DNA from: Sulfurifustis variabilis
GTDB taxonomy: Bacteria > Pseudomonadota > Gammaproteobacteria > Acidiferrobacterales > Sulfurifustaceae
NCBI RefSeq assembly: GCF_002355415.1
Contig: NZ_AP014936.1
Location: forward strand, 868,001-932,000
Reading direction: 5' to 3'
Length of the DNA: 64,000 nt
Shown in pieces: positions 10,732-28,176 of this stretch (the stretch's first letter is position 1; every line of letters begins with the position of its first letter). Made by a program: the position numbers and the translations under genes. The notes beneath the pieces were generated by a model. That model saw nothing but the letters and a program-made list of their open reading frames with translations. It made no database searches and had not been told where the DNA came from.

Positions 10732-11073
10732 TATTGGACCCCTCATTTTTTCCAAACCGGTGCTTGAACGCGCCAGACGCATCAAAGGATGACGTCCACC
10801 GAAACTAGGCGAGAGGCGAATCGACGTCAAAACCGGGCGACGGGCCGCAATGCCGCACGGACCGGCGGCATTCGCGGCGCGCGCGCAAGCCGCCCGGCGA
10901 TCCGCGGGGTCCGCCACCGTGCGCGAGGAGCGATTAGCGGGCGGGCTTCGAAGCGCGACCGCCGGCAGAACACCCGCGGCGTGTCCGGGCAACGAGAGCC
11001 GGTGATATAGTGAGCCGGCCGGCGGCAGATGCCCACGGAAGCCGCCGCCTGCTAATAATAGGAGGAGGGAGCC
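10732..11073. other. Divergent intergenic region
   Basis: This gap lies between the divergent exported-protein and GDSL genes. Apart from the ribosome site GGAGGAGGG before the GDSL start and a TATAGT-like box near 11003-11014, I see no gene or repeat in it. Confidence 0.3.
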
Positions 11074-12027: not shown

Positions 12028-12205
12028 TTCCCCCAACCCCACTTCCCCTCTCCCCTCGCGGGAGAGGGGCCAGGGGAGAGGGGGCAAACCAATACGGCAT
12101 CCGCGCGAAGTACGCACCAAAGAGGCCAGCCGCCACCTTCGCCCCATATCGGCGCCACTTCCCCTCTCCCCTCGCGGGAGAGGGGCCAGGGGAAAGGGGG
12201 CAGAT
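12028..12205. repeat. Two copies of the CCCTCTCCC palindromic repeat
   Basis: Two near-identical blocks lie at about 12050-12090 and 12158-12202, each reading CTTCCCCTCTCCCCTCGCGG then GAGAGGGGCCAGGGG. Each can fold into a strong hairpin. They lie downstream of the GDSL gene. The same family recurs across the window between genes. Confidence 0.85.
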
Positions 12206-12318
12206 CACCTCGGCATCCAATTCGGGCAGTCTCCGAAGCGCAAGGCAGCCGTCCTCCCGACCCCATCATCGAGCCACGTGAACTAGGCTGTTACTAAACA
12301 ATCCCAAACGCCCCACCC

Positions 12319-12951
12319 ATGTCCTTTGCCTTCGCCCCCAGCCCCTGGCTCGCCATCTGGCTCAGCCCGCGCGCCACCGTCCGCCGCCTGCTCGACGGCC
12401 CGCCGCGGCATCGCGAGCACATCCTCGGCACCCTGTTCGCGATCTCCGACGCGCTCGGCATCGCGGTGCTGCGCAACTGGGGCGACGGGCTCGACCTGGA
12501 GGTGATCCTCCTGATCGCCGTCGGCCTCGCCCCGGTCCGGATGGTCTTTTATCTATATATGTACCCGGCCCTCGCCTGGCTCACCGGCCGCTGGCTGGGC
12601 GGGCAGGCGAGCCTCCGCGACATCCGCATCGCCACCGCCTGGTCGTTCGTCCCGGCGCTCGGCGCCGCGCTCCTCTGGATCCCGGAGATCGCCCTCTTCG
12701 GCGACGAGCTCTTCATGAGCGAGCACCCGACCATTGAAGGCAGCCCCTGGCTCACCGGCGCGCTCTACGCCTTCGTGGCCCTCGAGGTCGTCGGCCTCGC
12801 CTGGTTCGGCGTCGTCTTCCTCGCCGCCCTGGCCGAGGCCCAGCGCTTCGCCGTCTGGCGCGCCGTCGCCAGCGTCGCCCTCGCGGTCGCGCTCCTCGTC
12901 GGCCCGATCTATTTCGGCCTCAACTGGCTCGCCGGCGGGATCGAACCATGA
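12319..12951 (+). CDS. Yip1-domain membrane protein
   Basis: The 210-residue protein has five predicted membrane helices. It begins with PSPWLAIWLSPRATVRRLLD, typical of bacterial YIP1 proteins. Helical segments follow, including ILLIAVGLAPVRMVFYLYMYPALAWLTGRWLGG. The function of bacterial Yip1 proteins is not established. The downstream gene at 13185 is on the same strand but is separated by a cluster of inverted repeats. Confidence 0.78.
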   Translation: MSFAFAPSPWLAIWLSPRATVRRLLDGPPRHREHILGTLFAISDALGIAVLRNWGDGLDLEVILLIAVGLAPVRMVFYLYMYPALAWLTGRWLGGQASLRDIRIATAWSFVPALGAALLWIPEIALFGDELFMSEHPTIEGSPWLTGALYAFVALEVVGLAWFGVVFLAALAEAQRFAVWRAVASVALAVALLVGPIYFGLNWLAGGIEP

Positions 12952-12967
12952 ACCACGTTACGTGGCC

Positions 12968-13160
12968 GTCATGGCGAGCCGAAGCGGCGAGGCATCGACG
13001 CGGGCCCCGCCCCGGTGTCATTGCGAGTGCAGCGAAGCAATCTCCGCATCAACGAGCCACAACACAGAGCGTTCTGTCATTGCGAGCGCAGCGAAGCAAT
13101 CTCGCCTTACCGATCGACCAGCCACGGATTACTTCGTCCCGTGTCGCTCCTCGCAATGAC
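12968..13160. repeat. Cluster of GTCATTGCGAGC/GCAATGAC repeat elements
   Basis: Half-copies begin at 12968 (GTCATGGCGAGCC) and 13017 (GTCATTGCGAGTGC). A full 85-base element spans 13076-13160, opening with GTCATTGCGAGCGCAGCGAA and closing with TCGCTCCTCGCAATGAC in inverted orientation. The outer ends are near-perfect inverted repeats, as in REP or MITE-like elements. No reading frame lies inside. Confidence 0.85.
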
Positions 13161-13184
13161 AGACTTGCGATAAACGCCTGAGCC

Positions 13185-14540
13185 ATGCGCTACCTCGACA
13201 AATTCCTCAAGTGGCTCGGCTTCGGCCTGCTCCTCGCCCCCTTCGTCTGGTATCTCGTCTTCCGCTTCGACGAACCGCTCGACCCGGAAGTGCAGGCGGC
13301 CCTGACGGCCGAAGTCCGGGTGCCGGAGGAGGAGAACGGCTACTACGCACTCCTCGGCATGCACGCCCCCGCCGAAGTCGCGGACGTGCACGCCCACGGC
13401 CGCGACCTGGTCGCCCAGTACCGCCAGGCGCTCGCCGCCGATCCGGATCTGGCGGCGTACCAGTTTCCGGAACGCGCCCTCGACTTCCGCGGCGACCAGG
13501 CGCTCCTCTGCAAGCCCCAGAAATCCGCCTGCCTGTCGCAGGCCGCGAAATCGTCGCGTGGCCTCGACCGCCTCCTCGAACAGAACGCCGTCCTGCTCGC
13601 CCGCTACCGCGCTCTCTACCGCTACCCGCGCTTCGTCGAGACGATCCCCGCGCACCGCTCGGCGCCGTTCGCCCACTACCCGATCGACGCACGCAACCTC
13701 GTGCTCGCCCGGATCGCCCGGGACGCCGCGCGCGGCCGTCTCGAGCCGGCGCTCGACGCCCTCGCCGAGGACACGCGCTACTGGCGCGCGGTCCTCGCCG
13801 ACACGCGCACGCTGCTCACGAAAGTGGTGGCCGTGGCCTCCCTGCACCGCAACTACGAGCTCCTCGCCGAGATCCTCGCCGCCGCCCCGATTCCGCCGGC
13901 CGCGGAGCAGCGGCTAAAGCCGATGCTCGCGCCGCTCACCCCCGCCGAGCGCAGCATGGTCGAGCCGCTGCGCTGGGAGTTCGCCGCCTACGGCAACTAC
14001 GCGAAGGCGATCAAGGCGGGCGTCAAGGAAGGACTCGAGGGCCCCGACAACGGGAACGCCACCCGCGCCGTACTCGCCTGGCTGGGCGATGCCCTGGTCC
14101 AGGAGAACGCGACCCGCAACCTGGTCTACCGCCACCACATGGCCATCGCCGCCCTTGCCGACGTGCCCTCCACCGAGTTCGACGCCCGGCGCGCCGCCCT
14201 GGAAGAGGAGTACGCCTTCCGCTTAGGCTGGCACTACCTCTACAACCCGCTCGGCAAATTCCTTTTCCACGTCTCCCAACCGGAGTGGCCCAAGTACGCC
14301 GCCCGGATCCACGACCTCGACGGCTACATCCGCCTCGTCCGGCTTCAGCTCGAGCTGAAGTGGGGCAGGGTGCGCCTTCCCGACGTCCCGACCTACCTCG
14401 CCGACGCCGGCACGTCGCTCAACGACCCCTACACCGGCCAACCGATGGCCTGGGACCCGGCGACGAAAACCATCTCCTTCCGCGGCCGCGGCGTAAGGCC
14501 AAAGGACAGCCCGATACTGGCCGTGCGCCTGGGCGGTTAG
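13185..14540 (+). CDS. Hypothetical membrane-anchored protein, 451 residues
   Basis: The protein has one N-terminal membrane segment (LGFGLLLAPFVWYLVF, about residues 10-25). A long soluble part follows, with DEPLDPEVQAALTAE, EENGYYALLGMHAPAEVADVHAHGRDLV and a helical middle section. The C-terminus PYTGQPMAWDPATKTISFRG, with a final RLGG, looks like a beta-rich tail. I recognise no named family; similar proteins seem confined to proteobacteria. It is most likely anchored in the inner membrane facing the periplasm. Codon use matches the neighbouring core genes. Confidence 0.78.
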   Translation: MRYLDKFLKWLGFGLLLAPFVWYLVFRFDEPLDPEVQAALTAEVRVPEEENGYYALLGMHAPAEVADVHAHGRDLVAQYRQALAADPDLAAYQFPERALDFRGDQALLCKPQKSACLSQAAKSSRGLDRLLEQNAVLLARYRALYRYPRFVETIPAHRSAPFAHYPIDARNLVLARIARDAARGRLEPALDALAEDTRYWRAVLADTRTLLTKVVAVASLHRNYELLAEILAAAPIPPAAEQRLKPMLAPLTPAERSMVEPLRWEFAAYGNYAKAIKAGVKEGLEGPDNGNATRAVLAWLGDALVQENATRNLVYRHHMAIAALADVPSTEFDARRAALEEEYAFRLGWHYLYNPLGKFLFHVSQPEWPKYAARIHDLDGYIRLVRLQLELKWGRVRLPDVPTYLADAGTSLNDPYTGQPMAWDPATKTISFRGRGVRPKDSPILAVRLGG

Positions 14541-14965
14541 CCGCGTCCGCCGCAACCGAACGCGTACTATTTCCCCTCTCCCGCGGCGGGAGAGGGGTGG
14601 GGGAGAGGGGGCGAGAGGGTGAGAGGCGCGCTCGCGATCGGCCGCGTGCTGCTAGCGAACTGCTAGCGTGACAAGAATTAGCAGTTAGGGCCGCGTCGAG
14701 TCGGCCGCCCGCAAGCGCGCCACCAGGCGCTGATCGACCGCGTCGCCGACGAGTACTGCATCACGGCCGAGCGGCAGGGACTGCTGCTGAGGGTGTATGC
14801 CTGCCGCGGCGTCCCCTCCCCCTTGATGGGGGAGGGCGGGGGAGAGGGTGAAAGAGTCAGGCATTGGTCGAAATGAAATCGCCCACGTCCGCCGCGTCGC
14901 ACACGGCTGAGGCGGTCGCACGTGAAACTCTCGATCACGCCCGCGAAATCCCGCCGGTCGGCGGC
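14541..14965. other. Intergenic region with two palindromic repeats and a possible gene relic
   Basis: CCCTCTCCC-type repeats lie at about 14572-14615 and 14814-14855. Between them, about 14725-14805 reads on the + strand as a coding-like stretch containing HQALIDRVADEY, CITAERQGLLLRVYA. It has no start codon and no known family, so it may be a relic of a lost gene or chance. No intact gene is visible. Confidence 0.4.
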
Positions 14966-16081
14966 ATGAGCTATCGGTCAGGGGCCTTGAGCAGGCTGGT
15001 GGGCGTCCTGTGCCTCTGTCTCGTGGCCGGGGTCCAGGCCGATCAGCGCGAGATCGTCGTCTATCCGGGCTACGGCGGGAGCCGGGTCGTCATCGAGGGG
15101 CGGGTGATCGAGGCGCGCGGCGGGTCGACCGAGGCGGCGGGCGATTCGTGGATCACCAATCTTTGGCGCACCGCGCGGCGGCTGGTCAGCGACGAGCAGG
15201 AAGATGTCGCGGTGAACGTGCGGTTCGAGGGCCGCACGTTTCGCGCGGCAACGGACGAGGAGGGGTACTTCCGGGTCGAGGCGGACCTCCCGGCGGGCTC
15301 GCCGGCGGGGTGGCGCTCGGTCGAGGCGGCAACCGGAAACGGCGATGCCCGGGCGAAGGGCAAGGTGCTCGTCGTCCCCGCGGACAACCGGCTCGGCATC
15401 ATTTCCGATATCGACGACACGATCCTGATCTCGGAGGTCACCGACAAGTCGCGGCTGCTCCGGAATCTCCTCCTCGTGAACTACGTGCAGCGGCAGGCCG
15501 TGCCGGGGACCGCGGCGTTCTATGCCCGGCTGGCGGGCCGCAACCCGAAGCCGGAGGCGGCCCCCGTCTTCTATCTCTCCGCCTCGCCGCGGCAGTTGCA
15601 GGGCGGGATCCAGACGTTCCTCGATCGCAACGGTTTCCCGCCCGGAGTGCTGATCACCAAGAAGGTCACGAACGACGAGACGAGCGATCCCTTGCTCGAC
15701 CAGGTTCGGTACAAGACCGGCCGGATCGAGCAGTTGCTGGCGGCGCTGCCGCAGGTGCGTTTCGTGCTGGTCGGCGACGATGGGGAGAAGGACCCGGAGA
15801 TCTACGACGAGATCCGCCGGCGGTATCCGGATCGTATAGAGGCGATCTGGATCCGGAAGGCGGCGGATGTTGTCCCGCGGCCGACGTATCCCGGGCAGCG
15901 GGATCTGGCGGAGGCGCTTGGAGGTGCTGGCCGGGAACGGGGTGGACACCGTAACCAGCACGCTTTTTGGCTCCCGCCGGTAGCGCCTGAGCCAAATCAA
16001 AGGACCGCTCGAAGCAGCCTGCTAGGGTCGAGGCCGATTCTGACCCGCAGGGCTTCCTGGCGTCCCGCGGCTCTGTGTTAG
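14966..16081 (+). CDS. App1-like phosphatase (DUF2183), probably frameshifted near its 3' end
   Basis: The start at 14966 gives a signal-peptide-like N-terminus (SRLVGVLCLCLVAGVQA). The catalytic HAD-type motif SDIDDTIL (Asp148, Asp150) and LSASPRQL mark the App1/DUF2183 family, which includes phosphatidate phosphatases. The protein reads normally to about RDLAEAL at 15918. The annotated frame then gives a low-quality Arg/Gly-rich tail to 16081. Shifting one base at about 15919-15921 gives EVLAGNGVDTVTSTLFGSRR and a stop at 15983, with the high third-position GC seen upstream. I therefore suspect a one-base insertion, real or a sequencing error. Confidence 0.8.
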   Translation: MSYRSGALSRLVGVLCLCLVAGVQADQREIVVYPGYGGSRVVIEGRVIEARGGSTEAAGDSWITNLWRTARRLVSDEQEDVAVNVRFEGRTFRAATDEEGYFRVEADLPAGSPAGWRSVEAATGNGDARAKGKVLVVPADNRLGIISDIDDTILISEVTDKSRLLRNLLLVNYVQRQAVPGTAAFYARLAGRNPKPEAAPVFYLSASPRQLQGGIQTFLDRNGFPPGVLITKKVTNDETSDPLLDQVRYKTGRIEQLLAALPQVRFVLVGDDGEKDPEIYDEIRRRYPDRIEAIWIRKAADVVPRPTYPGQRDLAEALGGAGRERGGHRNQHAFWLPPVAPEPNQRTARSSLLGSRPILTRRASWRPAALC

Positions 16082-16323
16082 CATCCCCCTACTATTAGAA
16101 GCGGTGGGAGAGGGGGCTAGGCAGGCCTGACCCGAACGGCTCGGCAAGCTTCGCGCTTTGAGCGCGCCTCGTTTTCGTTGTGGCTCTCGATTGCGGGTCG
16201 CCCCAGCGCCTTTCGGGAGCTTCGGCGATAAGTTGCTTTCTGGTAGCGCCGTGCGATTGCCCGATTGTTACACGCACCGTAGCTGAATCGCAGTGAGCGC
16301 CAGTCAGTCGGGCAGGACAACAG
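16082..16323. other. Left edge of the defence island
   Basis: A truncated copy of the GGTGGGAGAGGGGG repeat lies at about 16101-16116. Beyond it the sequence becomes less GC-rich and leads directly to the helicase gene. I find no integrase, tRNA or clear direct repeat. The region just before 16324 should hold the operon promoter, but no strong -35/-10 pair stands out. Confidence 0.4.
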
Positions 16324-19300
16324 TTGATGCGCATTGACGAGCTAAAAGCTAACACTGTTATCCACGGTTCAAGTCTTCCCGAGCCGGTGCAAGTAATCGT
16401 CGTCGTGCCTCTAGGCACGTCGGCGAAGGTGATCGGCAAGGGGCGAAACACCGGGATGGTGTACGAACCTGTCCTAAACGAAGAGCAACTCATCGGCATC
16501 CAAGTACTACCGGAAGAAACATTCGACGGTGACGGCGAGCGTTTCCGGCTCGGTGTCGAGGCAATGCGCCTTGCGCTTGCCTATGAGTACGACCCCTATT
16601 TTTCGCTGTCTATCGCGCGCGTCGATCCGCTGCCGCATCAGCTTGAGGCGGTATACGACTACTTCATGAGGTTGCCGCGTATCCGGTTTCTGCTGGCCGA
16701 TGATCCGGGCGCTGGCAAGACGATCATGGCAGGGCTTCTGATCAAGGAGCTCAAGATTCGCGGCCTGGTCAAGCGGGTGCTGATCATCACACCGGCCAAC
16801 CTCACGTTCCAGTGGCAACGCGAGTTGAAGGACAAGTTCCGCGAAAACTTCGAAGTCATTCGCAGCGACGTTCTGCGCGCCAACTACGGGATGAATCCAT
16901 GGCAGGAGAAGGATCAGGTCGTCACCTCGGTGTCCTGGGTCTCTCGCATCGAAGATGCCAAGGATTCTTTGCTACGGAGCCGGTGGGATCTGGTCATTGT
17001 CGACGAGGCGCACAAGATGAGCGCCTACAGCAGCGAGAAGAAGACTCTTGCCTATCAGCTCGGCGAGGCCCTTTCGAACATGACGGATCACTACCTGCTG
17101 ATGACGGCGACCCCACACAAGGGCGATCCCGAGAACTTCTGCCTGTTCCTCGAGCTGCTCGACCGTGATGTCTATGGCGACATCAGGAGTCTGGAGGAAG
17201 CGATGGCGCGGCACGAAGCGCCGTTCTATCTGCGCCGCGTCAAGGAGGCGCTGGTCACGTTCCCCGAGCCGGAAACCGGTCACGTTAAGGCGCTTTTCAC
17301 CCGACGCATCGTCACTACCTCAGAATTTCAGATTTCGGACGAGGAACTGGATTTCTATGACCGCCTGACTCGCTACGTCGAAGATCAATCGATTAAAGCC
17401 GCAGCCGATGATTCGGCCCGTGGCCGGGCGCTCGCCTTCACCATGGCCATGCTTCAGCGCCGATTCGCCTCCAGCCTTTACGCTGTGCGGCGCAGCCTGG
17501 AACGCATGCGCGACAAGCGCGAGCGCATTCTCAAGGACCCGGAGGGCTACCGGCGGGAGCAGATGAACAAGCGGCTGCCCGAGGACTTCGAGGATCTGAC
17601 CGACGAAGAACAGCAGGAGATCATCTCCCAGCTCGAGGACGTCGTCGCCAGCGTCGATCCGGCGGCACTGCGCGAAGAGATCGCCGAGCTGAACAAACTG
17701 ATCAACCACGCCCGAGAGCTGGAAGCACGGGAGGTCGAGACCAAACTCACCGCTCTGAAGGATCTGCTAACCAAGCAGGGGGTCTTCGCCGACCCCAAGA
17801 TGAAGCTCTTAGTTTTTACCGAACACAAGGATACCCTGGACTTCCTTGCTGGGAGCGGACGCGAAGGCCGACCACTCGGGAAGCTGCGCGAATGGGGTCT
17901 CACTCTCACGCAAATCCATGGCGGTATGAAAATCGGTGACCGGGACACACCTGGCACCCGTATTTTCGCCGAGCGCGAATTCCGGGAATCAGCTCAAGTA
18001 TTGGTCGCCACAGAGGCCGCCGGCGAGGGCATAAACCTGCAGTTCTGTTGGTTGATGATCAACTACGACATCCCTTGGAACCCCGTACGCCTCGAACAGC
18101 GCATGGGCCGTATCCACCGCTACGGTCAGGAGAAGGACTGTCTGATCTTCAACTTCGTCTCGACCAACACCCGCGAGGGGCGCGTTCTGCACAAACTCTT
18201 CGAGCGTATCGAGGCGATCCAAGACGATCTAGACCCCAAGCGTACCGGCAAGATCTTCAACGTCCTCGGCGACGTGTTTCCTGCCAACCAACTCGAAAAG
18301 ATGCTGCGCGACATGTATGCGCACAACCAGATGACCGAAGAACTCATCAAGCAGCGCATCGTCGAGCAGGTCGACCGGAGGCGCTTCGAAAACATCACGC
18401 AATCCACGCTCGAGGGTCTCGCCAAGAAGGAACTGAACCTTTCCGCCATCATCGGCAAGTCCGCCGAGGCCAAGGAACGGCGGCTCGTGCCGGAAGTCAT
18501 CGAGGACTTCTTCCTCGAAGCCGGGCCGCTTACCGGCGTCTCACCAAAACCCGCAAAGACAGGCGCTCACATTTACAAAGTTGGCCGAGTCCCGCGCAAC
18601 CTATGGCCGACCGGCGAGCGCCTGGAGTCCCGCTTCGGCAAGCTCGGGCGTGAGTACGGCAACATTGTCTTCGATAAGGAACTGCTCAAGCAGGATGCCA
18701 CCCTGGAATGGGTGACGCCGGGCCATCCACTCTTCGAGGCGGTGCGCCAAGACGTCCTGGGACAGGTGCAGGAGCACCTCAAGCGCGGCGCCGTATTCTA
18801 CGACCTCCATAGTCAGACCCCGTACCGCCTGGATGTCTTCAGCGCGTCCATTCGCGACGGCCGGGGCAATGTCTTAAGCCGTCGGCTGTTCGTGGTACAA
18901 GCCGGTATGGATGGGAAGACGACCATCAAGCAGCCGACAATCTTCCTCGATCTCACTGCTGCTGAGACCCCGCCAGAAGTCCCGCACGATGCAGCCCTGC
19001 CGGATCGAAACCAGGTCGAGGTCGTCTTGCTGGAACAGGCGCTGAACCCGCTGCTCGAGGAATCGCGCCGGGAGCGCGAACGCGAGGTGGCCACCATTTC
19101 CCGCCATGCCGAGCTCTCGCTGAATACCATTATCCACCGCGAAAACCTTCTGTTGGCGGACCTCATATCCCAAAAGGAAAGTGGCTCCACCGAACCCGGA
19201 CTGGAAGGCCGCATCAAGATATCGGAAGACAAGCTCCTGGAGCTCGACCACCGCCTACAAAGCCGCCGCCGGGAGCTGGAGCAGGAACGGCAATGCTCGA

Positions 19301-19812
19301 TTGGAGATATCCAGCACATTGGTCGAGCGTGGGTCCTGCCCCATCCGGACCGGGCTGCCCCCGGGATCGCCCCCATGGTTTCCGACCCGGAGATCGAGCG
19401 CATAGCAGTCGACACCGTGATCGCGCACGAGGAAGCGGAAGGCCGAGTGGTGGAAAGCGTCGAAGCGGAGAACCGCGGTTTCGACCTCATCTCGCGCCGT
19501 CCGCACCCGGAGGACCCAAAGACCGCAATCGATGTTCGTTTCATTGAGGTCAAGGGTCGGGCTAGCGCCGGCGAGATCGCCCTGACGACCAACGAATACA
19601 AGACCGCGCAGCGCCTTGGCAACGACTACTGGCTTTATGTCGTTTTCCACTGCGCCACGCCGAATCCTTCCGTCAACATCCTGCGTAACCCCGCCACGCT
19701 CGACTGGCAGCCGATCGTCAAGGTCGAGCATTACCGTCTGAACGTCGATTCTGTAAGGCATCCTGTGGAGCTTCGAGAAGATCGCGCGCCTTATCAAAAG
19801 GGCGGGGAGTAA
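16324..19812 (+). CDS. SNF2-type DNA helicase/translocase with C-terminal DUF3883-like domain
   Basis: The 1162-residue protein has superfamily 2 helicase motifs: Walker A DDPGAGKT (residues 126-133), DEAH (227-230) and MTATPHKG. The C-terminal helicase lobe has EAAGEGINLQ (about 564) and QRMGRIHRYGQ (592-602). A region rich in Arg/Glu coiled-coil (about 900-1000) precedes a C-terminal DUF3883-like domain (about 1030-1140), with NRGFDLISRR and FIEVKGRAS; the GFD...EVKGR pattern resembles PD-(D/E)XK nuclease-like folds. This helicase type is found with methyltransferases in defence islands. It is the first gene of the operon, and the next gene starts three bases after its stop. Codon use is less GC-rich than that of the flanking core genes. 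Confidence 0.92.
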   Translation: MMRIDELKANTVIHGSSLPEPVQVIVVVPLGTSAKVIGKGRNTGMVYEPVLNEEQLIGIQVLPEETFDGDGERFRLGVEAMRLALAYEYDPYFSLSIARVDPLPHQLEAVYDYFMRLPRIRFLLADDPGAGKTIMAGLLIKELKIRGLVKRVLIITPANLTFQWQRELKDKFRENFEVIRSDVLRANYGMNPWQEKDQVVTSVSWVSRIEDAKDSLLRSRWDLVIVDEAHKMSAYSSEKKTLAYQLGEALSNMTDHYLLMTATPHKGDPENFCLFLELLDRDVYGDIRSLEEAMARHEAPFYLRRVKEALVTFPEPETGHVKALFTRRIVTTSEFQISDEELDFYDRLTRYVEDQSIKAAADDSARGRALAFTMAMLQRRFASSLYAVRRSLERMRDKRERILKDPEGYRREQMNKRLPEDFEDLTDEEQQEIISQLEDVVASVDPAALREEIAELNKLINHARELEAREVETKLTALKDLLTKQGVFADPKMKLLVFTEHKDTLDFLAGSGREGRPLGKLREWGLTLTQIHGGMKIGDRDTPGTRIFAEREFRESAQVLVATEAAGEGINLQFCWLMINYDIPWNPVRLEQRMGRIHRYGQEKDCLIFNFVSTNTREGRVLHKLFERIEAIQDDLDPKRTGKIFNVLGDVFPANQLEKMLRDMYAHNQMTEELIKQRIVEQVDRRRFENITQSTLEGLAKKELNLSAIIGKSAEAKERRLVPEVIEDFFLEAGPLTGVSPKPAKTGAHIYKVGRVPRNLWPTGERLESRFGKLGREYGNIVFDKELLKQDATLEWVTPGHPLFEAVRQDVLGQVQEHLKRGAVFYDLHSQTPYRLDVFSASIRDGRGNVLSRRLFVVQAGMDGKTTIKQPTIFLDLTAAETPPEVPHDAALPDRNQVEVVLLEQALNPLLEESRREREREVATISRHAELSLNTIIHRENLLLADLISQKESGSTEPGLEGRIKISEDKLLELDHRLQSRRRELEQERQCSIGDIQHIGRAWVLPHPDRAAPGIAPMVSDPEIERIAVDTVIAHEEAEGRVVESVEAENRGFDLISRRPHPEDPKTAIDVRFIEVKGRASAGEIALTTNEYKTAQRLGNDYWLYVVFHCATPNPSVNILRNPATLDWQPIVKVEHYRLNVDSVRHPVELREDRAPYQKGGE

Positions 19813-19815
19813 GGC

Positions 19816-21288
19816 ATGGCCGATCCTAAGAACGAACTCCAGGCAAGCTTTCAGCCGGCGAAACGTTTTCAAACCTATGGCGACCTCATTCTCGGTCTTC
19901 GCGCCAAAGGTTTTCGCAATCACTTTGATACCAAGATCGAGATCGAAAGCCCGATCACAGCCTTTTGCGGAGTCAATGGCACAGGGAAGTCAACGCTGTT
20001 ACAACTCGCCGCCGCTAGTTACCAAGCGCCAAACGGGCAAAATCGGCACTACGTCTCGTCGTTCATCCTGGCGGGAACCCTGGACAGCAAGCCTTTCGCC
20101 GACGATGCCTCGATCGAGATTACCTACGAACAGCCCCCCGAAAGCAGCGGGTCCATCCAGCCTCGAACGCTGACGGTTTCCCGATCGGGATCGTCGTGGT
20201 CCGGTTATGACCGCCAGCCTGAGCGCACGGTCCTGTATCTCGGCCTAGCCTTTCATCTGCCTCATGCTGAGCGCGACGAGAACTTCAAGACACTGTTCGG
20301 CGACGCGCAGTTCCGTCTCAGGGAAAAGCATGCGCTCGAAGATAGGGTTGTCGAGCGGGTCTCGACCATTCTCCTGTGCAAATACGACGCCGCGCATCGA
20401 AATACGCTGAGGAAGCGGTATGGTCGCACGAACACGCATCTCCTTACAGCTAAGCGCTGTGCTGGTGCGGAGTACTCGGAGGCCAACATGGGCTCGGGAG
20501 AGGCACGTTTGTATGCCCTCGTCATGCAGATTGAAGCGGCACCCGAGAAGAGTCTGCTTCTCGTTGAGGAGCCGGAAACGTCGTTGCACCCGAGCGCCCA
20601 ATACGAGCTTGGTCGCTACCTTGTGGAGGTTGCCAAGCGCCGCGGCCTACAGATATGGCTCACCACGCACAGCGAATACCTTCTGCTGGCATTGCCCCAA
20701 AAATCGCGCATCTATCTCAAACGGGACGGCGCGTCGGTCGTCCCCATCCCAGGCGTGGGCGTGCGACAAGCCGTGAGCCTGATGGACAACTTCGCGATCC
20801 CAGCGATTTACGTGCTGGTCGAGGACGATGTGGCTGAGTCGATCGTTGCCGAACTCCTGCGCATGCATGACCCGGACTTCCTCAAGACGGCACGTGTGAT
20901 CGTGGGCGGTGACAAAGCCCGGATCCGCCAGATGATGGAGGTCTTCCAGGATCAGAAGCTGCCGGTCTGCGGGGTACGCGACGGCGATTTCGGTGATGAC
21001 AAGAAGCTCAAGATGTACAAGCTTTTCGGCAACGAGCCGCCGGAGAGGGAAATCTTCAAGTCGGCAAAGTTCAGAGAGCTCTTTGCCGGCCAGCACGGGG
21101 TGGATTGGGACGCTGTGGATATCGCGAACCAAGACAAGGACCATCACGGATGGTTTGATGTCCTCGAGCAGCAGCTGGCCCGAAAACGGGCGGAGATCCT
21201 CCCCTTGGCAGCCCGCGCCTACCTCGAAGGAATCCTAGAAACCGACCGGCAAGCGTTGGTCGATCAAATCAAGGCAGCAGTACCATGA
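19816..21288 (+). CDS. OLD-family-like ATPase with TOPRIM-like nuclease part
   Basis: The 490-residue protein has an N-terminal ABC/SMC-like ATPase: Walker A GVNGTGKST (residues 52-60), a signature-like GSGEARLYAL, Walker B LLLVEEPETSLHP (Glu251/Glu252) and the H-loop LTTHSEYLLL. The C-terminal part has VEDDVAE (Glu336) and VRDGDFGDD (Asp389/Asp391), which match the acidic Glu and DxD residues of TOPRIM nucleases. OLD proteins are ATP-driven nucleases used in phage exclusion (P2 Old, GajA, retron partners). It overlaps the next gene by four bases (ATGA), so the two are translationally coupled. Confidence 0.87.
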   Translation: MADPKNELQASFQPAKRFQTYGDLILGLRAKGFRNHFDTKIEIESPITAFCGVNGTGKSTLLQLAAASYQAPNGQNRHYVSSFILAGTLDSKPFADDASIEITYEQPPESSGSIQPRTLTVSRSGSSWSGYDRQPERTVLYLGLAFHLPHAERDENFKTLFGDAQFRLREKHALEDRVVERVSTILLCKYDAAHRNTLRKRYGRTNTHLLTAKRCAGAEYSEANMGSGEARLYALVMQIEAAPEKSLLLVEEPETSLHPSAQYELGRYLVEVAKRRGLQIWLTTHSEYLLLALPQKSRIYLKRDGASVVPIPGVGVRQAVSLMDNFAIPAIYVLVEDDVAESIVAELLRMHDPDFLKTARVIVGGDKARIRQMMEVFQDQKLPVCGVRDGDFGDDKKLKMYKLFGNEPPEREIFKSAKFRELFAGQHGVDWDAVDIANQDKDHHGWFDVLEQQLARKRAEILPLAARAYLEGILETDRQALVDQIKAAVP

Positions 21289-24158
21289 AAAACGATTACA
21301 AGCGGTTGATTGAGGTCGACCTTCCCATCCGCCGCATTTCGAACCACGCGCGGGCCGAGAAGAACATTCGTTCCGGCCACCCGTGGCAGCTTCACATCTG
21401 GTGGGCACGCCGCCCCTGGGGGGCCTGCCGTGCCGTGGCGCTCGCCTCGCTGATTCCCGCGCCGACGGATGAGCGTTGCCCGGAGGAGTTCGTCAAGACT
21501 GCCACTTCAGTGCTGACCGAAGTTGGTTTCAAACCGGCTGACGGTTCTCGGCAGAAGGTGGAGGATGCGCTGCTGCGCTTCATTGGAGAATTCGCCCGCT
21601 GGGAAGCCGGCGGAGATCCACACTGGCGCAGCGCAGCGCGTAAGCTCGTCAAAGCGATGCATCCTCACGCGCCCCACGTGTTCGATCCATTCTCCGGCTA
21701 TGGCGCCATCCCGGGGGAAGCCGCACGGCTCGGCTGCGAGAGCGTTGCCTCCGAGCTGAATCCGGTGGCCCTGCTGTGTCTGCGCACCTTGCTAGAGGCA
21801 ATGCCGCGGCACGGCGAATCGCTCATCGAGAAGTTCAATGAAGGCGCGGAATTCGTCAAGGCGGAGGCGGAGAAGCGTCTAGCGTCGTATTACCCCGAGA
21901 GAAACGGCAAGCAAGTCATCGCCTGGTTGTGGGCGCGCACGGTGACCTGTGAAGGGCCGGGCTGCGGCGCGACCGTCCCGCTGATTTCCCAGACCACCAT
22001 TGCCAAGGGCAGTCGTAAGGCGTGGATCGAGGTCACGGGCGACCCCAAAACCAAGGAAGTGCGCATTGCCGTACGCTCGGGCAAGTTTATCCCCGCAGGA
22101 CTCAAAAAGACCGCTGGTGGTGGCTATGCTATCTGCCCGGTGTGCGGCTTCACCACTGACAAGGAGCGGGTCAAGGCGCAAGGCAAGGAAGGGAGGATCG
22201 CACACCGACTTTATGGCGTGGCGATGGCCATCGGGACCCGGCAGGGCAAGGAGTATGCCGAGCCGATGCCGGAAGACTTGGCGGCGTTCGATAAAGCTGT
22301 CGCGGCGTGGGAGCGAACCCTAAAGAGCAACCCGGATGCTGACCCGCGTGAGAAATATCCGTTTCACGATCCTCGCGCATTTACAGCAGGGCAGTATGGC
22401 ATCAAGACCTGGGGCGACTTGTTCTCACCGCGCCAAAAACTGGCGCTTCACACCATCGGTGAAATCCTCCGCGATTATGAGCAGCGCTTGGCGGCTCGTG
22501 GCGAAGATCGGTCACTGGTGCGCGACACGGTGACCGCACTGGCGCTCTCAGTAAGCAACACGGTGCACTATCTGACGACCATGAGCACATGGTTATCCGA
22601 GGGCATGATCTCGTGCTTCATCGCGGGCAATGCTATTGCCATGCGTTGGGATTGGGCTGAGGCAAATCCTCTCGTCGATACATATGCCGGGGGGCTCGAC
22701 TTTTCCTTTAAGAAGTCCGAAGAAGCTCTTGCCTCAACCATCGCCATCGACAATACGACCACCACGGTGATGCGCGCTGATGCGGCCAACTATCCGCTGC
22801 CGGACGATGCAGCCGAGATGTTTTTTTCGGACCCGCCCTATTATGACGTCGTGCCCTATGCCGACCTCTCCGATCTCTGCTATGTCTGGCTCAAACGATT
22901 CGTCGGCCATGCACAGCCTGATCTGCTGTCGGAAGACCTGACCCCAAAAGCTGAGCAGATCGTGGTCAATCCTTATGCGGTTGAGGACGGCCGAGGCGAC
23001 CAGTCGCCGCAGCGCTATCAGGAGCGCATGACGCAGGCTTTCACCGAAGCGCGCCGGGTGCTCAGGCCCGATGGCATCGGCTGCGTTGTTTTCGCCCACA
23101 AGGGCACGGCGGCGTGGGAAACGTTGCTCGCATCCATCATCGACGCGGGCTTCGTGGTGACCGCCTCGTGGCCTATCGATACCGAACGCGCGGCGCGCAT
23201 GCGCGCCTACAAGTCAGCCGCCCTTGGCTCCAGTGTCCATATCGTGGTGCGCCCGCGCGAAAACCCGGATGGCTCCTTGCGTACCCAAGAAGTGGGCGAC
23301 TGGCGCGATGTGCTCGCCGAACTGCCGCGCAAGATCCGGGGCTGGATTCGGCGTTTGATTCATGAGGGCGTGGTGGGGGCCGACGCGATCTTCGCGTGCC
23401 TTGGGCCGGCATTGGAAATCTATTCCCGTCATGCCCGAGTCGAAAAGGCGAACGGAGACCAAGTGTTCCTACGCGAGTATCTGGAACACGTTTGGGCAAC
23501 CATCTCTCGGGAGGCATTGGCCACCATTTTTGAAGGCGCGGACGCCACGGGCTTCGAGCCAGATGCGCGCCTTACCGCCATGTGGCTGTGGACGCTGCGC
23601 ACGGAGGCGGGCGACGCCGCGGCAGCGGTTGACGATGAGGACGATGAGTCCGAGAGCAAAGCCGGTAACGCCAAAGGGTATGCTTTGGAGTTCGATGCGG
23701 TGAACAACATTGCGAAAGGTCTCGGTATTCACCTGGAGGACCTTACCTCGGTGGTGGAGATCAGCAAGGGCAACGCGCGCCTCCTGGCAGTCTCAGAGCG
23801 CACGCGGTACCTGTTCGGTGGGGCGCCGGAGGAACCGGTCAAGCGAGGACGAAAGAAGGCCGAACAGCAGGATCTGTTCGCGGAACTGTTGGATGAGGCG
23901 GATGCAGAATTTGCGAGGCGCGAGAAGGTAATCTTGAAGCCTGGAGCCACGACTCTCGACCGCGTGCATCAAGCCATGATCCTGTTTGCCACAGGTCGCG
24001 GTGAGGCTTTGAAGCGGCTGCTGGTGGATGACGGCGCGGGGCGGGATGCTCGCTTCTGGACGCTGGCAAACGCGCTGCTGGCACTCTATCCCAAATCAAG
24101 CGAGGAGAGTCGCTGGGTGGACGGCGTGCTGGCGCGGAAGAAGGGCCTGGGGTTGTGA
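21285..24158 (+). CDS. DUF1156 adenine-specific DNA methyltransferase with zinc ribbons
   Basis: The 957-residue protein begins with the DUF1156 signature (LIEVDLPIRRISNHARAEKN, then HIWWARRPW). It carries methyltransferase motif I (FDPFSGYGAIPGEAARLG, from residue 133) and motif IV DPPYYD (from residue 516), typical of N6-adenine methylases. Two CxxC/CxxxxC zinc-ribbon pairs occur: CEGPGC (222-227) and CPVC (284-287). It is long for a methylase, and the C-terminal region adds substrate-specificity or partner domains. It should modify host DNA to mark self in the neighbouring nuclease/helicase system. The next ORF starts two bases after its stop. Confidence 0.93.
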   Translation: MKNDYKRLIEVDLPIRRISNHARAEKNIRSGHPWQLHIWWARRPWGACRAVALASLIPAPTDERCPEEFVKTATSVLTEVGFKPADGSRQKVEDALLRFIGEFARWEAGGDPHWRSAARKLVKAMHPHAPHVFDPFSGYGAIPGEAARLGCESVASELNPVALLCLRTLLEAMPRHGESLIEKFNEGAEFVKAEAEKRLASYYPERNGKQVIAWLWARTVTCEGPGCGATVPLISQTTIAKGSRKAWIEVTGDPKTKEVRIAVRSGKFIPAGLKKTAGGGYAICPVCGFTTDKERVKAQGKEGRIAHRLYGVAMAIGTRQGKEYAEPMPEDLAAFDKAVAAWERTLKSNPDADPREKYPFHDPRAFTAGQYGIKTWGDLFSPRQKLALHTIGEILRDYEQRLAARGEDRSLVRDTVTALALSVSNTVHYLTTMSTWLSEGMISCFIAGNAIAMRWDWAEANPLVDTYAGGLDFSFKKSEEALASTIAIDNTTTTVMRADAANYPLPDDAAEMFFSDPPYYDVVPYADLSDLCYVWLKRFVGHAQPDLLSEDLTPKAEQIVVNPYAVEDGRGDQSPQRYQERMTQAFTEARRVLRPDGIGCVVFAHKGTAAWETLLASIIDAGFVVTASWPIDTERAARMRAYKSAALGSSVHIVVRPRENPDGSLRTQEVGDWRDVLAELPRKIRGWIRRLIHEGVVGADAIFACLGPALEIYSRHARVEKANGDQVFLREYLEHVWATISREALATIFEGADATGFEPDARLTAMWLWTLRTEAGDAAAAVDDEDDESESKAGNAKGYALEFDAVNNIAKGLGIHLEDLTSVVEISKGNARLLAVSERTRYLFGGAPEEPVKRGRKKAEQQDLFAELLDEADAEFARREKVILKPGATTLDRVHQAMILFATGRGEALKRLLVDDGAGRDARFWTLANALLALYPKSSEESRWVDGVLARKKGLGL

Positions 24159-24159
24159 G

Positions 24160-24744
24160 ATGGTCGATGCCCTGGGTGCGCGCTTCCGGGAGACATTCTT
24201 CGCTGTTATCCAGGAAGACGAGTTGGCGCGAGCGCTGAAGCAGGCGGCTTCCGACGCGAACCTCGGGGCATGGACGAGAGCTCTTACTGAGGCAGCGATC
24301 AGAACCTGCTCGAGGCTGGGGCTGATGGCCTCCGCCAAGGGGCACAAGCTGGAACTGCTGCCTATCCACCGTAATGAGTACTTGGCGCTGGATGTGATGG
24401 CCTTCTCCGAGGGCGAAAAGCGCTGGCGTTTTCCGGCGGCCGTGATGGAGTTGGAGAACAGCGCCCGGGACGACCAAATCGCCTACTCGCTTTGGAAGGT
24501 GTTGTCGGTACGGGCGGAGCTGCGGATCGTGTTCTGCTACCGGAGGAACGGGGAGGAGATCCCTGCCTTGCTTCGCCACCTGCGAGAAGAGGTGATCGAG
24601 GCGATGGGCTTGGCGGGCCGCGTGAAACTCGATGGGGCAACTTTGCTGGTGGTGGGCTCTCGAAGCGAATCGGGGACCTTTCCTTTCGGCTACTTCGGTT
24701 GGTGGTCGCTGGATACTAATACCGGAAGATTTGAACGGCTGTAG
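24160..24744 (+). CDS. Unrecognised 194-residue protein in the defence operon, weak nuclease-like pattern
   Basis: The ATG at 24160 follows the methylase stop by one base. The protein is all soluble. Helices cover residues 1-60. A strand pattern YLALDVMAF, WRFPAAVMELEN, then SLWKVLSVRAELRIVFCYRR resembles the Asp...Glu-x-x spacing of PD-(D/E)XK nucleases, with Glu-Asn where the catalytic Lys would be. The end reads PFGYFGWWSLDTN. DUF1156-DUF499 cassettes often carry a small DUF3780 protein between them; this gene holds that slot, but I cannot confirm the family. Nuclease function is only a suggestion. Confidence 0.75.
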   Translation: MVDALGARFRETFFAVIQEDELARALKQAASDANLGAWTRALTEAAIRTCSRLGLMASAKGHKLELLPIHRNEYLALDVMAFSEGEKRWRFPAAVMELENSARDDQIAYSLWKVLSVRAELRIVFCYRRNGEEIPALLRHLREEVIEAMGLAGRVKLDGATLLVVGSRSESGTFPFGYFGWWSLDTNTGRFERL

Positions 24745-24753
24745 GGGACAACG

Positions 24754-27585
24754 ATGAAACTGAAACCTTGGTATGACGTAGTGAAGCCGCGCGAGGACTT
24801 GCGGGAGGGCAAGCCACTCGACGCTTCTGAATTCGCCGTTCATCTGGATAAGGTGCGCCTCGGAGACCAGGGCAATGCGCCAGAGGACTACAAGGACCCG
24901 CAACGGTTTTTCGACCGGACGTTCCTCACCGAGAATCTGGCGGGCCTGGGAGCAGAGGTAATGCGCAGGCTCAGTGGCATCACCACTGAGACAAGCGCCG
25001 TGTTCAACATGACCACGCAGTTCGGTGGCGGCAAGACCCACGCGCTGACCCTGCTCTATCATCTTGCACGGCATGGATCGGCCGGCAATGGTTGGCGAGG
25101 TGTCGCCAAGATTCTACAGCGGGCCGGCATTCCAACCGTTCCTGACCACTGCGCGGTCGCTGTCTTCGTCGGTACAGAGTTCGATTCCGTTACCGGTCGG
25201 GGGGGCGACGACGGGACACCGAGGCGTAGGACACCCTGGGGCGAGCTCGCTTGGCAATTGGGGGGCACGGAGTCCTTTGCCCATGTCGCCCAGCACGACG
25301 CGGAGTTCATCGAACCCAAGGGCGACGTGATCGGAAAGTTCCTGCCGGCGGATCGTCCCTGCCTGATCCTGATGGACGAGGTGCTGAACTACATCAGTAC
25401 CTACCGCGACCGGGGCTGGCACAACAAGCTTTATAACTTCATTCAAGCGCTGTCGGAAACAGTTCGCGGGCGCAACAACGCCGTCTTGGTTGGTTCGATT
25501 CCGGCCTCCGAGCTTTCCTACACGGACAAGGACCACGCCGACCAGCAGCGCCTGAAGAATCTACTGGACCGGCTCGGCAAGGCGGTGATCGTGTCGGTGG
25601 AGTCGGAAACCTCCGAGATCATCCGTCGCCGGCTATTCGAATGGGATGAGCGGGCCGTGACCTCGGATGGCCGAGTGATCCTGGACAAGCAGGCGGAGGA
25701 CACCTGCCGCGCCTATGCGGACTGGGTGCAAGAACATCGCCAGCAGTTGCCGAGCCTCATCAACCCCGACCTCGCCCGCGAGGAGTTTCGAGCAACCTAT
25801 CCATTTCACCCTATGGTGATTTCCGTCTTCGAGCGGAAGTGGCAGACCCTGCCGCGCTTTCAGCAGACGCGCGGCATCCTGCGCCTGTTGGCACTTTGGG
25901 TGTCCAGGGCCTACCAGGAGGGCTACAAGGGGGCGCAACGCGATCCCTTGATCACACTGGGTACCGCGCCACTCGATGACCCCATGTTCCGTGCTGCCGT
26001 GTTCGAGCAGCTTGGCGAGACCAAACTGGAGGCGGCGGTCACCACGGACATTGCCGGCAAGAAGGATGCCCATGCCGTCCGGCTTGATGCCGAGGCCATC
26101 GACGCGATCAAGAAGGCTAGGCTCCATCGCAAGGTTGCGGCCACGATCTTTTTCGAGTCGAACGGTGGGCAGGTTGGTGCGGAAGCGCAGGAGGCCAGCG
26201 TCCCCGAGATTCGGCTTGCTGTGGGGCAACCCGGTAGCGACATCGGCAACATAGAGACCGTGCTGGAGGCACTCACCGACGCTTGCTACTACCTGAACGT
26301 CGAAAAGACCCGGTACAAGTTCAGCCTGAAGGAAAACCTCAACAAGCGATTCGCAGACCGCCGCGCCACCGTCCAGGCCCCGCAAGTGGACGAGGAGGTT
26401 AAACGGGAGATTCAGAAGATATTCGCGCCGAAGGAATTCGTCGAACGAGTGTTCTTCCCCGAAAAGAGTATTCAGATTTCCGATCGCCCTGTGATCAGCT
26501 TTCTCATCGCCGACCTGGATCGGACGATGGAAGACGAGAAGGCAACCCGCCAGTTCGTGGAGCAGATGATCAGGGAATGCGGTACGACCGCGCGGACGTT
26601 CAAGAGCGCGCTGATCGGGGTGGTGCCGGATTCCGCTCAGTCCATGCGGGAGGAGGCCCGGAAACTTCTGGCCTGGCAGGCAATTCAAGACGACGCGGAC
26701 GATTTAAAGCTCGACGAAGCGCAGAAGAAGCAGCTCGCCGAGTACAGCCATAAGGCCAAACGTGATCTGAAGGAGTCCATCTGGCGCAGCTACAAACACC
26801 TGTTCCTGCTTGCCAAGGACAACACGGTGAAGATGGTCGATCTCGGGCTTGTTCATTCCAGTGCAGCGGACTCGCCTCTCTCCAACATCCTTAACCGGTT
26901 GTCCGCCGATGGCGACGTCGAGAAAGGAGTGAGCCCGAACTTTTTGGTGCGCAACTGGCCGCCCGCTTTCAAGGAATGGGCGACCAAGTCCGTTCGCGAC
27001 GCGTTCTACGCGTCACCCGTTTTTCCACGCCTATTGAACGCGGAGACGATCAAAGAAACGATCGCGCGCGGTGTCGAGAGCGGAATTCTCGCCTACGTGG
27101 GTAAAGGTACCTCCGGCAAGTATCAACCGTTCGCCTTCAATCAGAGCGTCAGCCCCGCCGACATCGAGTTCTCTGACGACATGTTTGTCATCACGGCGGA
27201 AACGGCGCGAGCCTATCTGGAGGGGCAAGCCGCACAACCTCCCGAGGGAGTTTCTGTAGGAGCAGGTGGCACGGGTGCTGGAGCTGCGACGGGAGGTGGC
27301 GTGGAGCCGGATGGCAAACCGATTGAGCTGCCTCCATCGGCACCGACACCGCCTGATGCGGGCCCAGCGAAGATAGCCGGCCTCAGATGGTCAGGCGAAG
27401 TGCCTCCGCAGAAATGGATGAATTTCTACACCAAGGTGCTCTCCCGCTTTGCCGCTACTGGAGGCCTGAAACTTACTGTCGAGGTTGACGTAAACCCACC
27501 CGACGGGTTCTCAAAACAGACCTATGAGGACACTCAAAACGCATTACGAGAATTGGGGCTCGATGATCGAGTGGCTGAAAAATGA
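24754..27585 (+). CDS. DUF499 (COG1483-like) AAA-type ATPase
   Basis: The 943-residue protein opens with MKLKPWYDVVKPREDLREG. It contains an unusual Walker A, TQFGGGKTHALTLL (GGGKTH at residues 91-96), and Walker B LILMDEV (Asp208, Glu209). These match DUF499 proteins, which accompany DUF1156 methylases. The C-terminal 200 residues include a Gly/Pro-rich linker and a final alpha/beta region (LRWSGEVPPQKWMNFYTKVL). It probably acts as the motor or regulator of the methylase/nuclease assembly. It starts nine bases after the previous gene's stop and is the last large gene of the operon. Confidence 0.9.
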   Translation: MKLKPWYDVVKPREDLREGKPLDASEFAVHLDKVRLGDQGNAPEDYKDPQRFFDRTFLTENLAGLGAEVMRRLSGITTETSAVFNMTTQFGGGKTHALTLLYHLARHGSAGNGWRGVAKILQRAGIPTVPDHCAVAVFVGTEFDSVTGRGGDDGTPRRRTPWGELAWQLGGTESFAHVAQHDAEFIEPKGDVIGKFLPADRPCLILMDEVLNYISTYRDRGWHNKLYNFIQALSETVRGRNNAVLVGSIPASELSYTDKDHADQQRLKNLLDRLGKAVIVSVESETSEIIRRRLFEWDERAVTSDGRVILDKQAEDTCRAYADWVQEHRQQLPSLINPDLAREEFRATYPFHPMVISVFERKWQTLPRFQQTRGILRLLALWVSRAYQEGYKGAQRDPLITLGTAPLDDPMFRAAVFEQLGETKLEAAVTTDIAGKKDAHAVRLDAEAIDAIKKARLHRKVAATIFFESNGGQVGAEAQEASVPEIRLAVGQPGSDIGNIETVLEALTDACYYLNVEKTRYKFSLKENLNKRFADRRATVQAPQVDEEVKREIQKIFAPKEFVERVFFPEKSIQISDRPVISFLIADLDRTMEDEKATRQFVEQMIRECGTTARTFKSALIGVVPDSAQSMREEARKLLAWQAIQDDADDLKLDEAQKKQLAEYSHKAKRDLKESIWRSYKHLFLLAKDNTVKMVDLGLVHSSAADSPLSNILNRLSADGDVEKGVSPNFLVRNWPPAFKEWATKSVRDAFYASPVFPRLLNAETIKETIARGVESGILAYVGKGTSGKYQPFAFNQSVSPADIEFSDDMFVITAETARAYLEGQAAQPPEGVSVGAGGTGAGAATGGGVEPDGKPIELPPSAPTPPDAGPAKIAGLRWSGEVPPQKWMNFYTKVLSRFAATGGLKLTVEVDVNPPDGFSKQTYEDTQNALRELGLDDRVAEK

Positions 27586-27767
27586 CCATTGGGTGCGCGT
27601 ATCGATTTGCAGCTGATCCGCGTCGGACCCGCCCAAACGGGCGAACGCGCGAACTAGCTGTCTCCGATAGGCTGGTGTCGGAGCTGGGAAGCGCGTTTTT
27701 CGATCAGAAAAAGGCCTTCAGGGAGGAGCAGAACAAATTCGCGGTGAGATCCCGCAGTTTGATATAG
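27582..27767 (+). CDS. Possible short ORF overlapping the end of the DUF499 gene
   Basis: A 61-residue frame starts at an ATGA overlap with the DUF499 stop and ends with SELGSAFFDQKKAFREEQNKFAVRS. The overlap is typical of coupled operon genes and the second half looks protein-like. The first half is Arg/Pro-rich and weak. It could be a short real gene, a decayed one, or chance. Confidence 0.25.
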   Translation: MTIGCAYRFAADPRRTRPNGRTRELAVSDRLVSELGSAFFDQKKAFREEQNKFAVRSRSLI

Positions 27768-27804
27768 GGGCTGCTCTGTGGTTTTTAAAAAAGACGAATA
27801 GCCA

Positions 27805-28176
27805 ATGGCAAAGAAGAAGGCAATCATTCACCGCTACGATAATCTGCCCGATATCTTGGCGGTCGAAAAGAATGGCTGCAGCGAAGTATACAAGCGAAGT
27901 CGTGACGACGATTTCGAACTCGTCATCGTAGTGCCGACAACGAGGGCGCGTACGCAAAAAGCGGTCGTTGCTGATGCCGCAAGTCGACAGTACAGACCGC
28001 CGCGCGCTCGACCTTGGCCAGGACGGCCAGACGCATATCCGGTACGAGTTGACGTTAGGAACGTACGATACACCACTCTCAGCAAAGTTCGCGATGCTAT
28101 GAAGAAAGCCGGCGAGTCCTGGGCGGCCGCTTGGGTTATCAAGAGCGTAATGTTGGAAGAAAACGACCTATTCTGA
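27805..28176 (+). CDS. Hypothetical protein at the end of the defence island
   Basis: The 123-residue protein has a Lys-rich start (MAKKKAIIHRYDNLPDIL), a strand-rich segment (DDFELVIVVPTTRAR) and a compact C-terminal motif (PWPGRPDAYPVRVDVRNVRYTT, then AMKKAGESWAAAWVIKSVML). The pattern of a PWPGxPxxYPVRVDV strand followed by a helix is distinctive, but I do not recognise the family. A small modified-base reader would be one idea; nothing proves it. It lies 219 bases after the DUF499 gene on the same strand, with a purine-rich leader (AATAGCCAATGG) and no strong ribosome site. Confidence 0.6.
   Translation: MAKKKAIIHRYDNLPDILAVEKNGCSEVYKRSRDDDFELVIVVPTTRARTQKAVVADAASRQYRPPRARPWPGRPDAYPVRVDVRNVRYTTLSKVRDAMKKAGESWAAAWVIKSVMLEENDLF

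What the first reader, a model, noticed from the sequence alone, without database searches (positions are those of the whole stretch)
16324..28176. Five-gene candidate defence system: helicase, OLD-like nuclease, DUF1156 methylase, unknown protein, DUF499 ATPase
The first five genes are head-to-tail with gaps of 1-10 bases or overlaps, implying one operon. The methylase (DUF1156 plus zinc ribbons) and DUF499 ATPase are a known pairing in defence islands, usually with a SNF2-type helicase and a small third protein. I recall, but cannot verify, that related sets have been called DISARM-related arrays. The OLD-like ATPase/TOPRIM nuclease inserted between helicase and methylase is not part of the sets I know, so this may be a new variant combining restriction-modification with an OLD effector.
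Basis: partly seen in the sequence, partly recalled or inferred. Interest (0 to 1): 0.87.

Follow-up and report, generated by a model that had tools for sequence, protein, structure and literature searches.

The report
Hma defence operon carrying OLD-type nuclease
This is a bacterial anti-virus gene cluster of a known type (Hma: helicase, methylase, ATPase) with a second, OLD-type defence gene inserted in it; such insertions have been described before, but close relatives show the site-recognition part being swapped while the rest of the machine stays the same.

Summary
In detail: five same-strand genes at 16324-27585, joined by gaps of 1-9 bases or a 4-base overlap. They are HmaA (Snf2 helicase with a C-terminal PD-(D/E)XK/NOV_C domain), an OLD-like ABC-ATPase-TOPRIM protein, HmaB (DUF1156 N6-methylase), an unnamed 195-aa protein and HmaC (DUF499 ATPase). 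This is an Hma system (also called a DUF499-centred 'BREX-related' system), not DISARM. The inserted OLD gene is not a new combination: it best matches PADLOC's HEC-04, 'Hma-embedded candidate 4', whose earlier members protect E. coli from T4 and T5. The same five genes in the same order occur in Tepidicella (OLD 90% identical), and a 39% identical OLD sits in the same slot in Nostoc. Verdict: new member of a known kind.

Two results go somewhat further. (1) In near-identical operons HmaB alone varies: its central segment is swapped in four Planktothrix operons, and the whole slot+HmaB block differs between Tepidicella and Tepidimonas, whose HmaA and HmaC are ~98-99% identical. HmaB is thus the likely sole specificity subunit. 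(2) The 195-aa protein matches no library searched, lies between HmaB and HmaC, has a tentative PD-(D/E)XK fold, and occurs in about a third of sampled relatives (accessory).

The parts
16324..19812 (+). HmaA: Snf2-type helicase with C-terminal NOV_C/DUF3883 PD-(D/E)XK nuclease domain
   Evidence: PADLOC HmaA 663 bits, E 3e-199; Pfam SNF2-rel_dom, Helicase_C, NOV_C; GAGKT at 129, DEAH at 227, FDL...IEVKGR at 1053-1079
19816..21288 (+). Embedded OLD-like effector (HEC-04-like): ABC ATPase + TOPRIM in one protein
   Evidence: PADLOC HEC-04 150 bits as best hit; Walker A, VEEPE, THS and TOPRIM E336, D389/D391 invariant in 7 homologues; model residues 328-490 match the OLD TOPRIM domain, Z 9.4 to 6p74, rmsd 3.0 over 118
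21285..24158 (+). HmaB: DUF1156 adenine-N6 DNA methylase; central segment between DPFSGYG (134) and DPPYYD (516) is the likely target recognition part
   Evidence: PADLOC HmaB 340 bits; Pfam DUF1156; central segment hypervariable in otherwise near-identical operons
24160..24744 (+). Unnamed 194-195 aa accessory protein (U195), tentative PD-(D/E)XK fold with D78, E97, E99, K113 invariant (numbered from the ATG)
   Evidence: No Pfam, PADLOC or NCBIfam hit; alignment of 16 sequences, 52-92% identical to the window's, all between HmaB and HmaC where context is visible; model pLDDT 68, best Z 4.4 to REase-fold 3ijm
24754..27585 (+). HmaC: DUF499 AAA+ ATPase
   Evidence: PADLOC HmaC 423 bits over residues 1-924; Pfam DUF499; GGGKT at 91, LILMDE at 204

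Best explanation
An Hma (DUF499-centred BREX-related) restriction-like defence system that carries an embedded HEC-04-like OLD effector. Proposed working: HmaB methylates adenine in a site set by its central recognition segment and marks host DNA. HmaC (DUF499 ATPase) and HmaB together survey incoming DNA. On unmethylated sites they recruit or license HmaA, a translocating helicase with a PD-(D/E)XK nuclease, which destroys the DNA. HmaB is the single specificity subunit for both modification and restriction, as PglX is in BREX. The OLD-like gene is a separate module: an ATP-regulated TOPRIM nuclease that senses phage action and cuts nucleic acid as a second line, sharing the promoter. Shown here: gene content, operon layout, intact catalytic motifs, exchange of HmaB's central segment and of slot genes in relatives. 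Inferred: methylation, the division of labour, phage protection, and the role of U195 (perhaps a PD-(D/E)XK helper).
For: Profiles for HmaA/B/C and HEC-04. Same five genes in order in Tepidicella L006 (92/90/84/92/91% identity) and OLD in the same slot in Nostoc L014. Catalytic motifs present in HmaA, OLD, HmaB and HmaC, OLD's conserved across 7 homologues; OLD TOPRIM fold. Slot HmaA|HmaB in relatives holds other defence genes: HEC-01A/B (L007), PsyrTA/ShosTA-like (L015), Schlafen-AlbA+ParA (L008), or nothing (L017, L114); the genome's own second Hma operon holds a CBASS cyclase + 2TM effector there. Single specificity subunit: Planktothrix operons have HmaA 97.5-99.6% and HmaC 96-99.5% identical, and HmaB near-identical at both ends but falling to 26-45% in much of its centre in most pairs; Tepidicella and Tepidimonas share 100% DNA identity in nearly all windows over about 3 kb of HmaA and about 2 kb of U195-HmaC, yet differ in the whole slot + HmaB. 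[quoted passage not shown] Literature: Hma (PMC8565338), HEC (PMC12111858), BR systems (PMC12839542).
Against: No phenotype, methylation data or expression data for this operon. The HEC-04 match covers profile 21-403 of 494 at 150 bits with no curated cut-off, so the OLD is a divergent member. The HmaB tree does not formally reject window+Tepidicella+Tepidimonas as one clade (AU p 0.108); the swap rests on the identity pattern. Whether HmaC or U195 also recognises DNA is untested.
Confidence: 0.85

Rival explanations
1. The OLD protein is an integral effector of this Hma subtype: HmaA/B/C sensing activates it, and the five genes form one obligate machine.
For: Tight spacing and overlap; it differs together with HmaB between Tepidicella and Tepidimonas, so the pair may be matched; recurs at the slot in Nostoc.
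Against: A relative with 92% identical HmaA/HmaC has HEC-01A/B instead, others have TA genes or nothing; OLD homologues also sit outside Hma operons on plasmids, beside other restriction genes or without any; the Nostoc OLD goes with a different HmaB clade; HEC-04 is reported to protect E. coli (PMC12111858).
Confidence: 0.12
2. A DISARM-related system.
For: HmaA is homologous to DrmD and BrxH helicases (429 and 345 bits).
Against: HmaA profile scores far higher (663 bits); DrmD equivalog cut-offs missed (356 of 610; 224 of 950); no separate DrmA, DrmB or DrmC gene in the operon.
Confidence: 0.02
3. An add-on to the best explanation: the slot + HmaB block is exchanged as a unit because flanking HmaA and U195-HmaC give homology for recombination, so effector and specificity change together in one event.
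For: Tepidicella against Tepidimonas: identity drops inside the last about 350 bases of HmaA and returns at about the start of U195. Window and Tepidicella share OLD (90%) and HmaB (84-88%).
Against: One clear pair; in Planktothrix most of the change is confined to the HmaB centre, with slot 1 differing only in one member. Two separate replacements would give the same pattern.
Confidence: 0.45

Closest known systems
Hma system (Payne et al. 2021, PMC8565338)
   Same: Helicase HmaA, methylase HmaB, ATPase HmaC in one operon, all matched by their profiles
   Different: HmaB here is divergent from the profile (340 bits; an order relative reaches 1677 with PDLC00661); carries an extra 195-aa gene before HmaC
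Type-1 BREX-related (BR) DUF499 system (PMC12839542)
   Same: DUF499 ATPase, DUF1156 N6-methylase, Snf2 helicase with C-terminal PD-(D/E)XK; nearby TOPRIM auxiliaries reported
   Different: No HEPN domain found on the DUF499 protein (present in a subset of type 1); the 195-aa protein was not seen in the parts of that paper that were read
HEC-04 / IbfA (PMC12111858)
   Same: ABC ATPase fused to TOPRIM, embedded between Hma genes
   Different: Divergent sequence (150 bits over 77% of the profile); phage activity untested here
BREX type 3 / PglX specificity (PMC11341690, PMC12839542)
   Same: Methylase carries the recognition domain; inferred single specificity factor
   Different: No PglZ found; HmaB here is only distantly similar to PglX (41 bits)

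Membership tests
Hma | HmaA helicase present | tested here: met
   663 bits, residues 2-1123 on profile 2-1146/1176
Hma | HmaB methylase present | tested here: met
   340 bits; DUF1156 above the Pfam cut-off; DPPY present
Hma | HmaC ATPase present | tested here: met
   423 bits over residues 1-924
Hma | Adjacent same-strand operon | tested here: met
   Gaps of 1-9 bases or overlap
Type-1 BR system | C-terminal PD-(D/E)XK nuclease on helicase | tested here: met
   NOV_C 70.5 bits; FDL...IEVKGR motif
Type-1 BR system | Absence of type-2 DUF3780 gene and type-3 PglZ | tested here: met
   No such Pfam hit in the six ORFs
Type-1 BR system | N-terminal TUDOR domain on helicase; RRM at DUF499 C-terminus | not tested
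   No model of these proteins was made
HEC-04 | ABC ATPase fused to TOPRIM | tested here: met
   ATPase and TOPRIM motifs; TOPRIM fold Z 9.4 to OLD 6p74
HEC-04 | Matches HEC-04 profile and lies between Hma genes | tested here: met
   150 bits, best of 127 families; between HmaA and HmaB. No curated cut-off is given
HEC-04 | Anti-phage activity | not testable with these tools
   Needs a plating assay
DISARM | DrmA, DrmB, DrmC with a methylase and, in class 1, DrmD | tested here: not met
   No separate DrmA/B/C gene; DrmD cut-offs missed
Gabija | GajA next to GajB helicase | tested here: not met
   OLD scores 48 bits at best with GajA and no GajB lies beside it
PARIS | AriA ATPase with AriB TOPRIM nuclease | tested here: not met
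   AriA 84 bits against HEC-04 150; no AriB gene
PD-(D/E)XK nucleases (U195) | alpha-beta core with D...(E/D)xK | tested here: inconclusive
   Compatible strand order and invariant D78/E97/E99/K113; best Z only 4.4 among unrelated rows

The most novel reading that the evidence does not exclude
Hma systems change target by swapping HmaB's central recognition segment, or the whole effector+HmaB block, inside an otherwise near-identical operon. HmaB then fixes both methylation and restriction specificity, and U195 is an undescribed PD-(D/E)XK-like helper of a subset of them.
Probability: 0.45. Interest if true: 0.5.

Novelty: new member of a known kind. Interest (0 to 1): 0.33.

Why it matters
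It removes a claimed novelty (OLD within a methylase-DUF499 operon is the known HEC-04 arrangement). It also points to natural near-identical operon pairs that differ only in HmaB's central segment, or in HmaB plus the effector. These make the open question of what sets target specificity in Hma/BR systems directly testable by comparing methylomes and by segment swaps, as was done for BREX PglX.

Tried and rejected
DISARM membership: rejected on profile scores and missing genes. U195 as a core fourth subunit: rejected, because HmaC-based sampling shows most same-subfamily operons lack it. U195 by family search, PDB sequence search and profile comparison with HSDR_N, Uma2 and other slot-2 proteins of relatives: nothing. 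Foldseek with the U195 model gave no hit under E 0.001; BRCC36-like and acetyl-CoA carboxylase hits were ignored because the model is of low confidence. OLD and U195 in viral contigs: no relatives. ORF 27805-28176: no homologue in plasmids. Empty-site comparison: a flanking gene was searched in relatives, but the matches were too distant and it was not pursued. AU test on HmaB did not reject the shared clade (p 0.108). Rfam and tRNA scans of the window: nothing. The Halomonas Hma paper (PMC11232893) is not held; the HEC preprint is not held either, so whether it already reports the exchange is unknown.
Full report
The window lies at 868001-932000 of a 3.96-Mb single-contig genome. The reported genes are all there on the + strand: HmaA-like helicase 16324-19812, OLD-like protein 19816-21288, DUF1156 methylase 21285-24158, a 195-aa protein 24160-24744 and DUF499 ATPase 24754-27585, spaced +3, -4, +1 and +9 bases. 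A sixth ORF (27805-28176) lies 219 bases further on and has no homologue in any search made.

Identity. PADLOC profiles give HmaA 663 bits, HmaB 340, HmaC 423, and HEC-04 (150 bits) as the best of 127 families for the OLD-like protein; the 195-aa protein has no hit. Pfam agrees: SNF2/Helicase_C/NOV_C, AAA_15/AAA_21 with weak OLD TOPRIM, DUF1156, none, DUF499. The DISARM DrmD equivalogs fall below their cut-offs. Hma was named in 2021 (PMC8565338). In 2026 the same systems were reclassified as DUF499-centred BREX-related systems, whose type 1 mostly has a helicase-PD-(D/E)XK fusion and can have TOPRIM or other nucleases near or within the locus (PMC12839542). HEC means Hma-embedded candidate; HEC-04 is an ABC ATPase fused to TOPRIM that protects E. 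coli against T4 and T5 but not T7 or lambda (PMC12111858, citing Payne 2024, which is not held).

The OLD-like protein. Walker A, VEEPE, THS, and the TOPRIM acids E336 and D389/D391 are invariant in seven homologues. The AlphaFold model is poor in the ATPase half (pLDDT 53 overall) but good from residue 330 on. Foldseek's first hit is Thermus OLD (6p74, E 4e-7), followed by GajA; residues 328-490 align to 6p74 with Z 9.4, rmsd 3.0 over 118 residues.

Relatives. A scan with the 195-aa protein found 16 genomic loci, besides a Planktothrix plasmid. Where context is visible the 195-aa gene always lies between HmaB and HmaC. Tepidicella L006 has the identical five-gene order. The slot between HmaA and HmaB holds OLD in the window, L006 and Nostoc L014; HEC-01A/B in Tepidimonas L007; Schlafen+ParA in L008; PsyrTA/ShosTA-like genes in L015; others elsewhere; nothing in L017 or L114. 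The window genome's second Hma operon carries a CBASS cyclase (357 bits) and a 2TM effector (141 bits) in the same slot. This is the embedding pattern already published, so the finding is an instance of it.

Is the 195-aa protein core? Sampling by HmaC instead gave operons of the same subfamily: the 195-aa gene is present in L014, L018, L114 and L015, and absent in L111, L112, L113 and L115-L120; it is also absent from five cyanobacterial plasmid operons (L055-L059). So it is an accessory, found in about a third or fewer. Its slot is otherwise filled by HSDR_N+Uma2+PD-(D/E)XK-type genes, PIN or VapBC genes, or others. Its model (pLDDT 68) has a strand order that suits PD-(D/E)XK, with D78, E97, E99 and K113 invariant. 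The best structural match is a restriction-endonuclease-fold protein, but with Z 4.4 only, so the fold call is tentative.

Natural swaps. Tepidicella L006 and Tepidimonas L007 (different genera) have 100% DNA identity in nearly all 100-base windows over about 3 kb of HmaA and about 2 kb of U195-HmaC, while everything between, slot genes and HmaB, differs, HmaB being about 50% identical. HmaC places the window, L006 and L007 in one clade (SH-aLRT 98); HmaB puts window+L006 on a long branch of their own, although an AU test does not exclude the joint clade (p 0.108). In four Planktothrix-type operons (L055, L056, L058 and L116, an unnamed relative whose slot-2 genes are nearly the same) HmaA is 97.5-99.6% and HmaC 96-99.5% identical, and HmaB is near-identical at both ends but falls to 26-45% in much of its centre in most pairs. 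That centre lies between motif I (DPFSGYG, 134) and DPPY (516) in the window numbering, where the methylase target recognition insert is placed (PMC12839542). Because nuclease and ATPase stay constant while the methylase's recognition part changes, HmaB most simply sets specificity for both marking and restriction, as shown for PglX in BREX (PMC11341690). This is inference from sequence; no methylome was available.

Conclusion. A real, intact-looking Hma system with an embedded HEC-04-like OLD effector: a new member of a known kind. The OLD insertion is already described; the HmaB exchange and the unnamed 195-aa protein are the parts worth a follow-up.

Noticed in passing
L062 (G000:C1:3041000-3060000), about 7683-19001, minus strand: Second, divergent Hma operon in the same genome with a CBASS cyclase and 2TM effector between HmaA and HmaB.
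   Followed up: yes
L055, L056, L058, L116: Planktothrix-type Hma operons nearly identical except for the central part of HmaB; slot 2 holds a trio of HSDR_N, Uma2 and a third protein that looks PD-(D/E)XK-like by eye.
   Followed up: partly
L008:4776-6976 and L117:3914-6075: The same Schlafen-AlbA + ParA-like gene pair sits in slot 1 of one Hma operon and in slot 2 of another, suggesting a mobile two-gene defence module without a specific PADLOC name.
   Followed up: partly
L013:3959-5662 and L013:8761-9969: Two embedded genes (568 and 403 aa) in a planctomycete Hma operon with no Pfam or PADLOC match; candidates for new defence genes.
   Followed up: no
window 27805-28176: Orphan 123-aa ORF after HmaC without any homologue found; an antisense ORF of the same length overlaps it.
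   Followed up: partly
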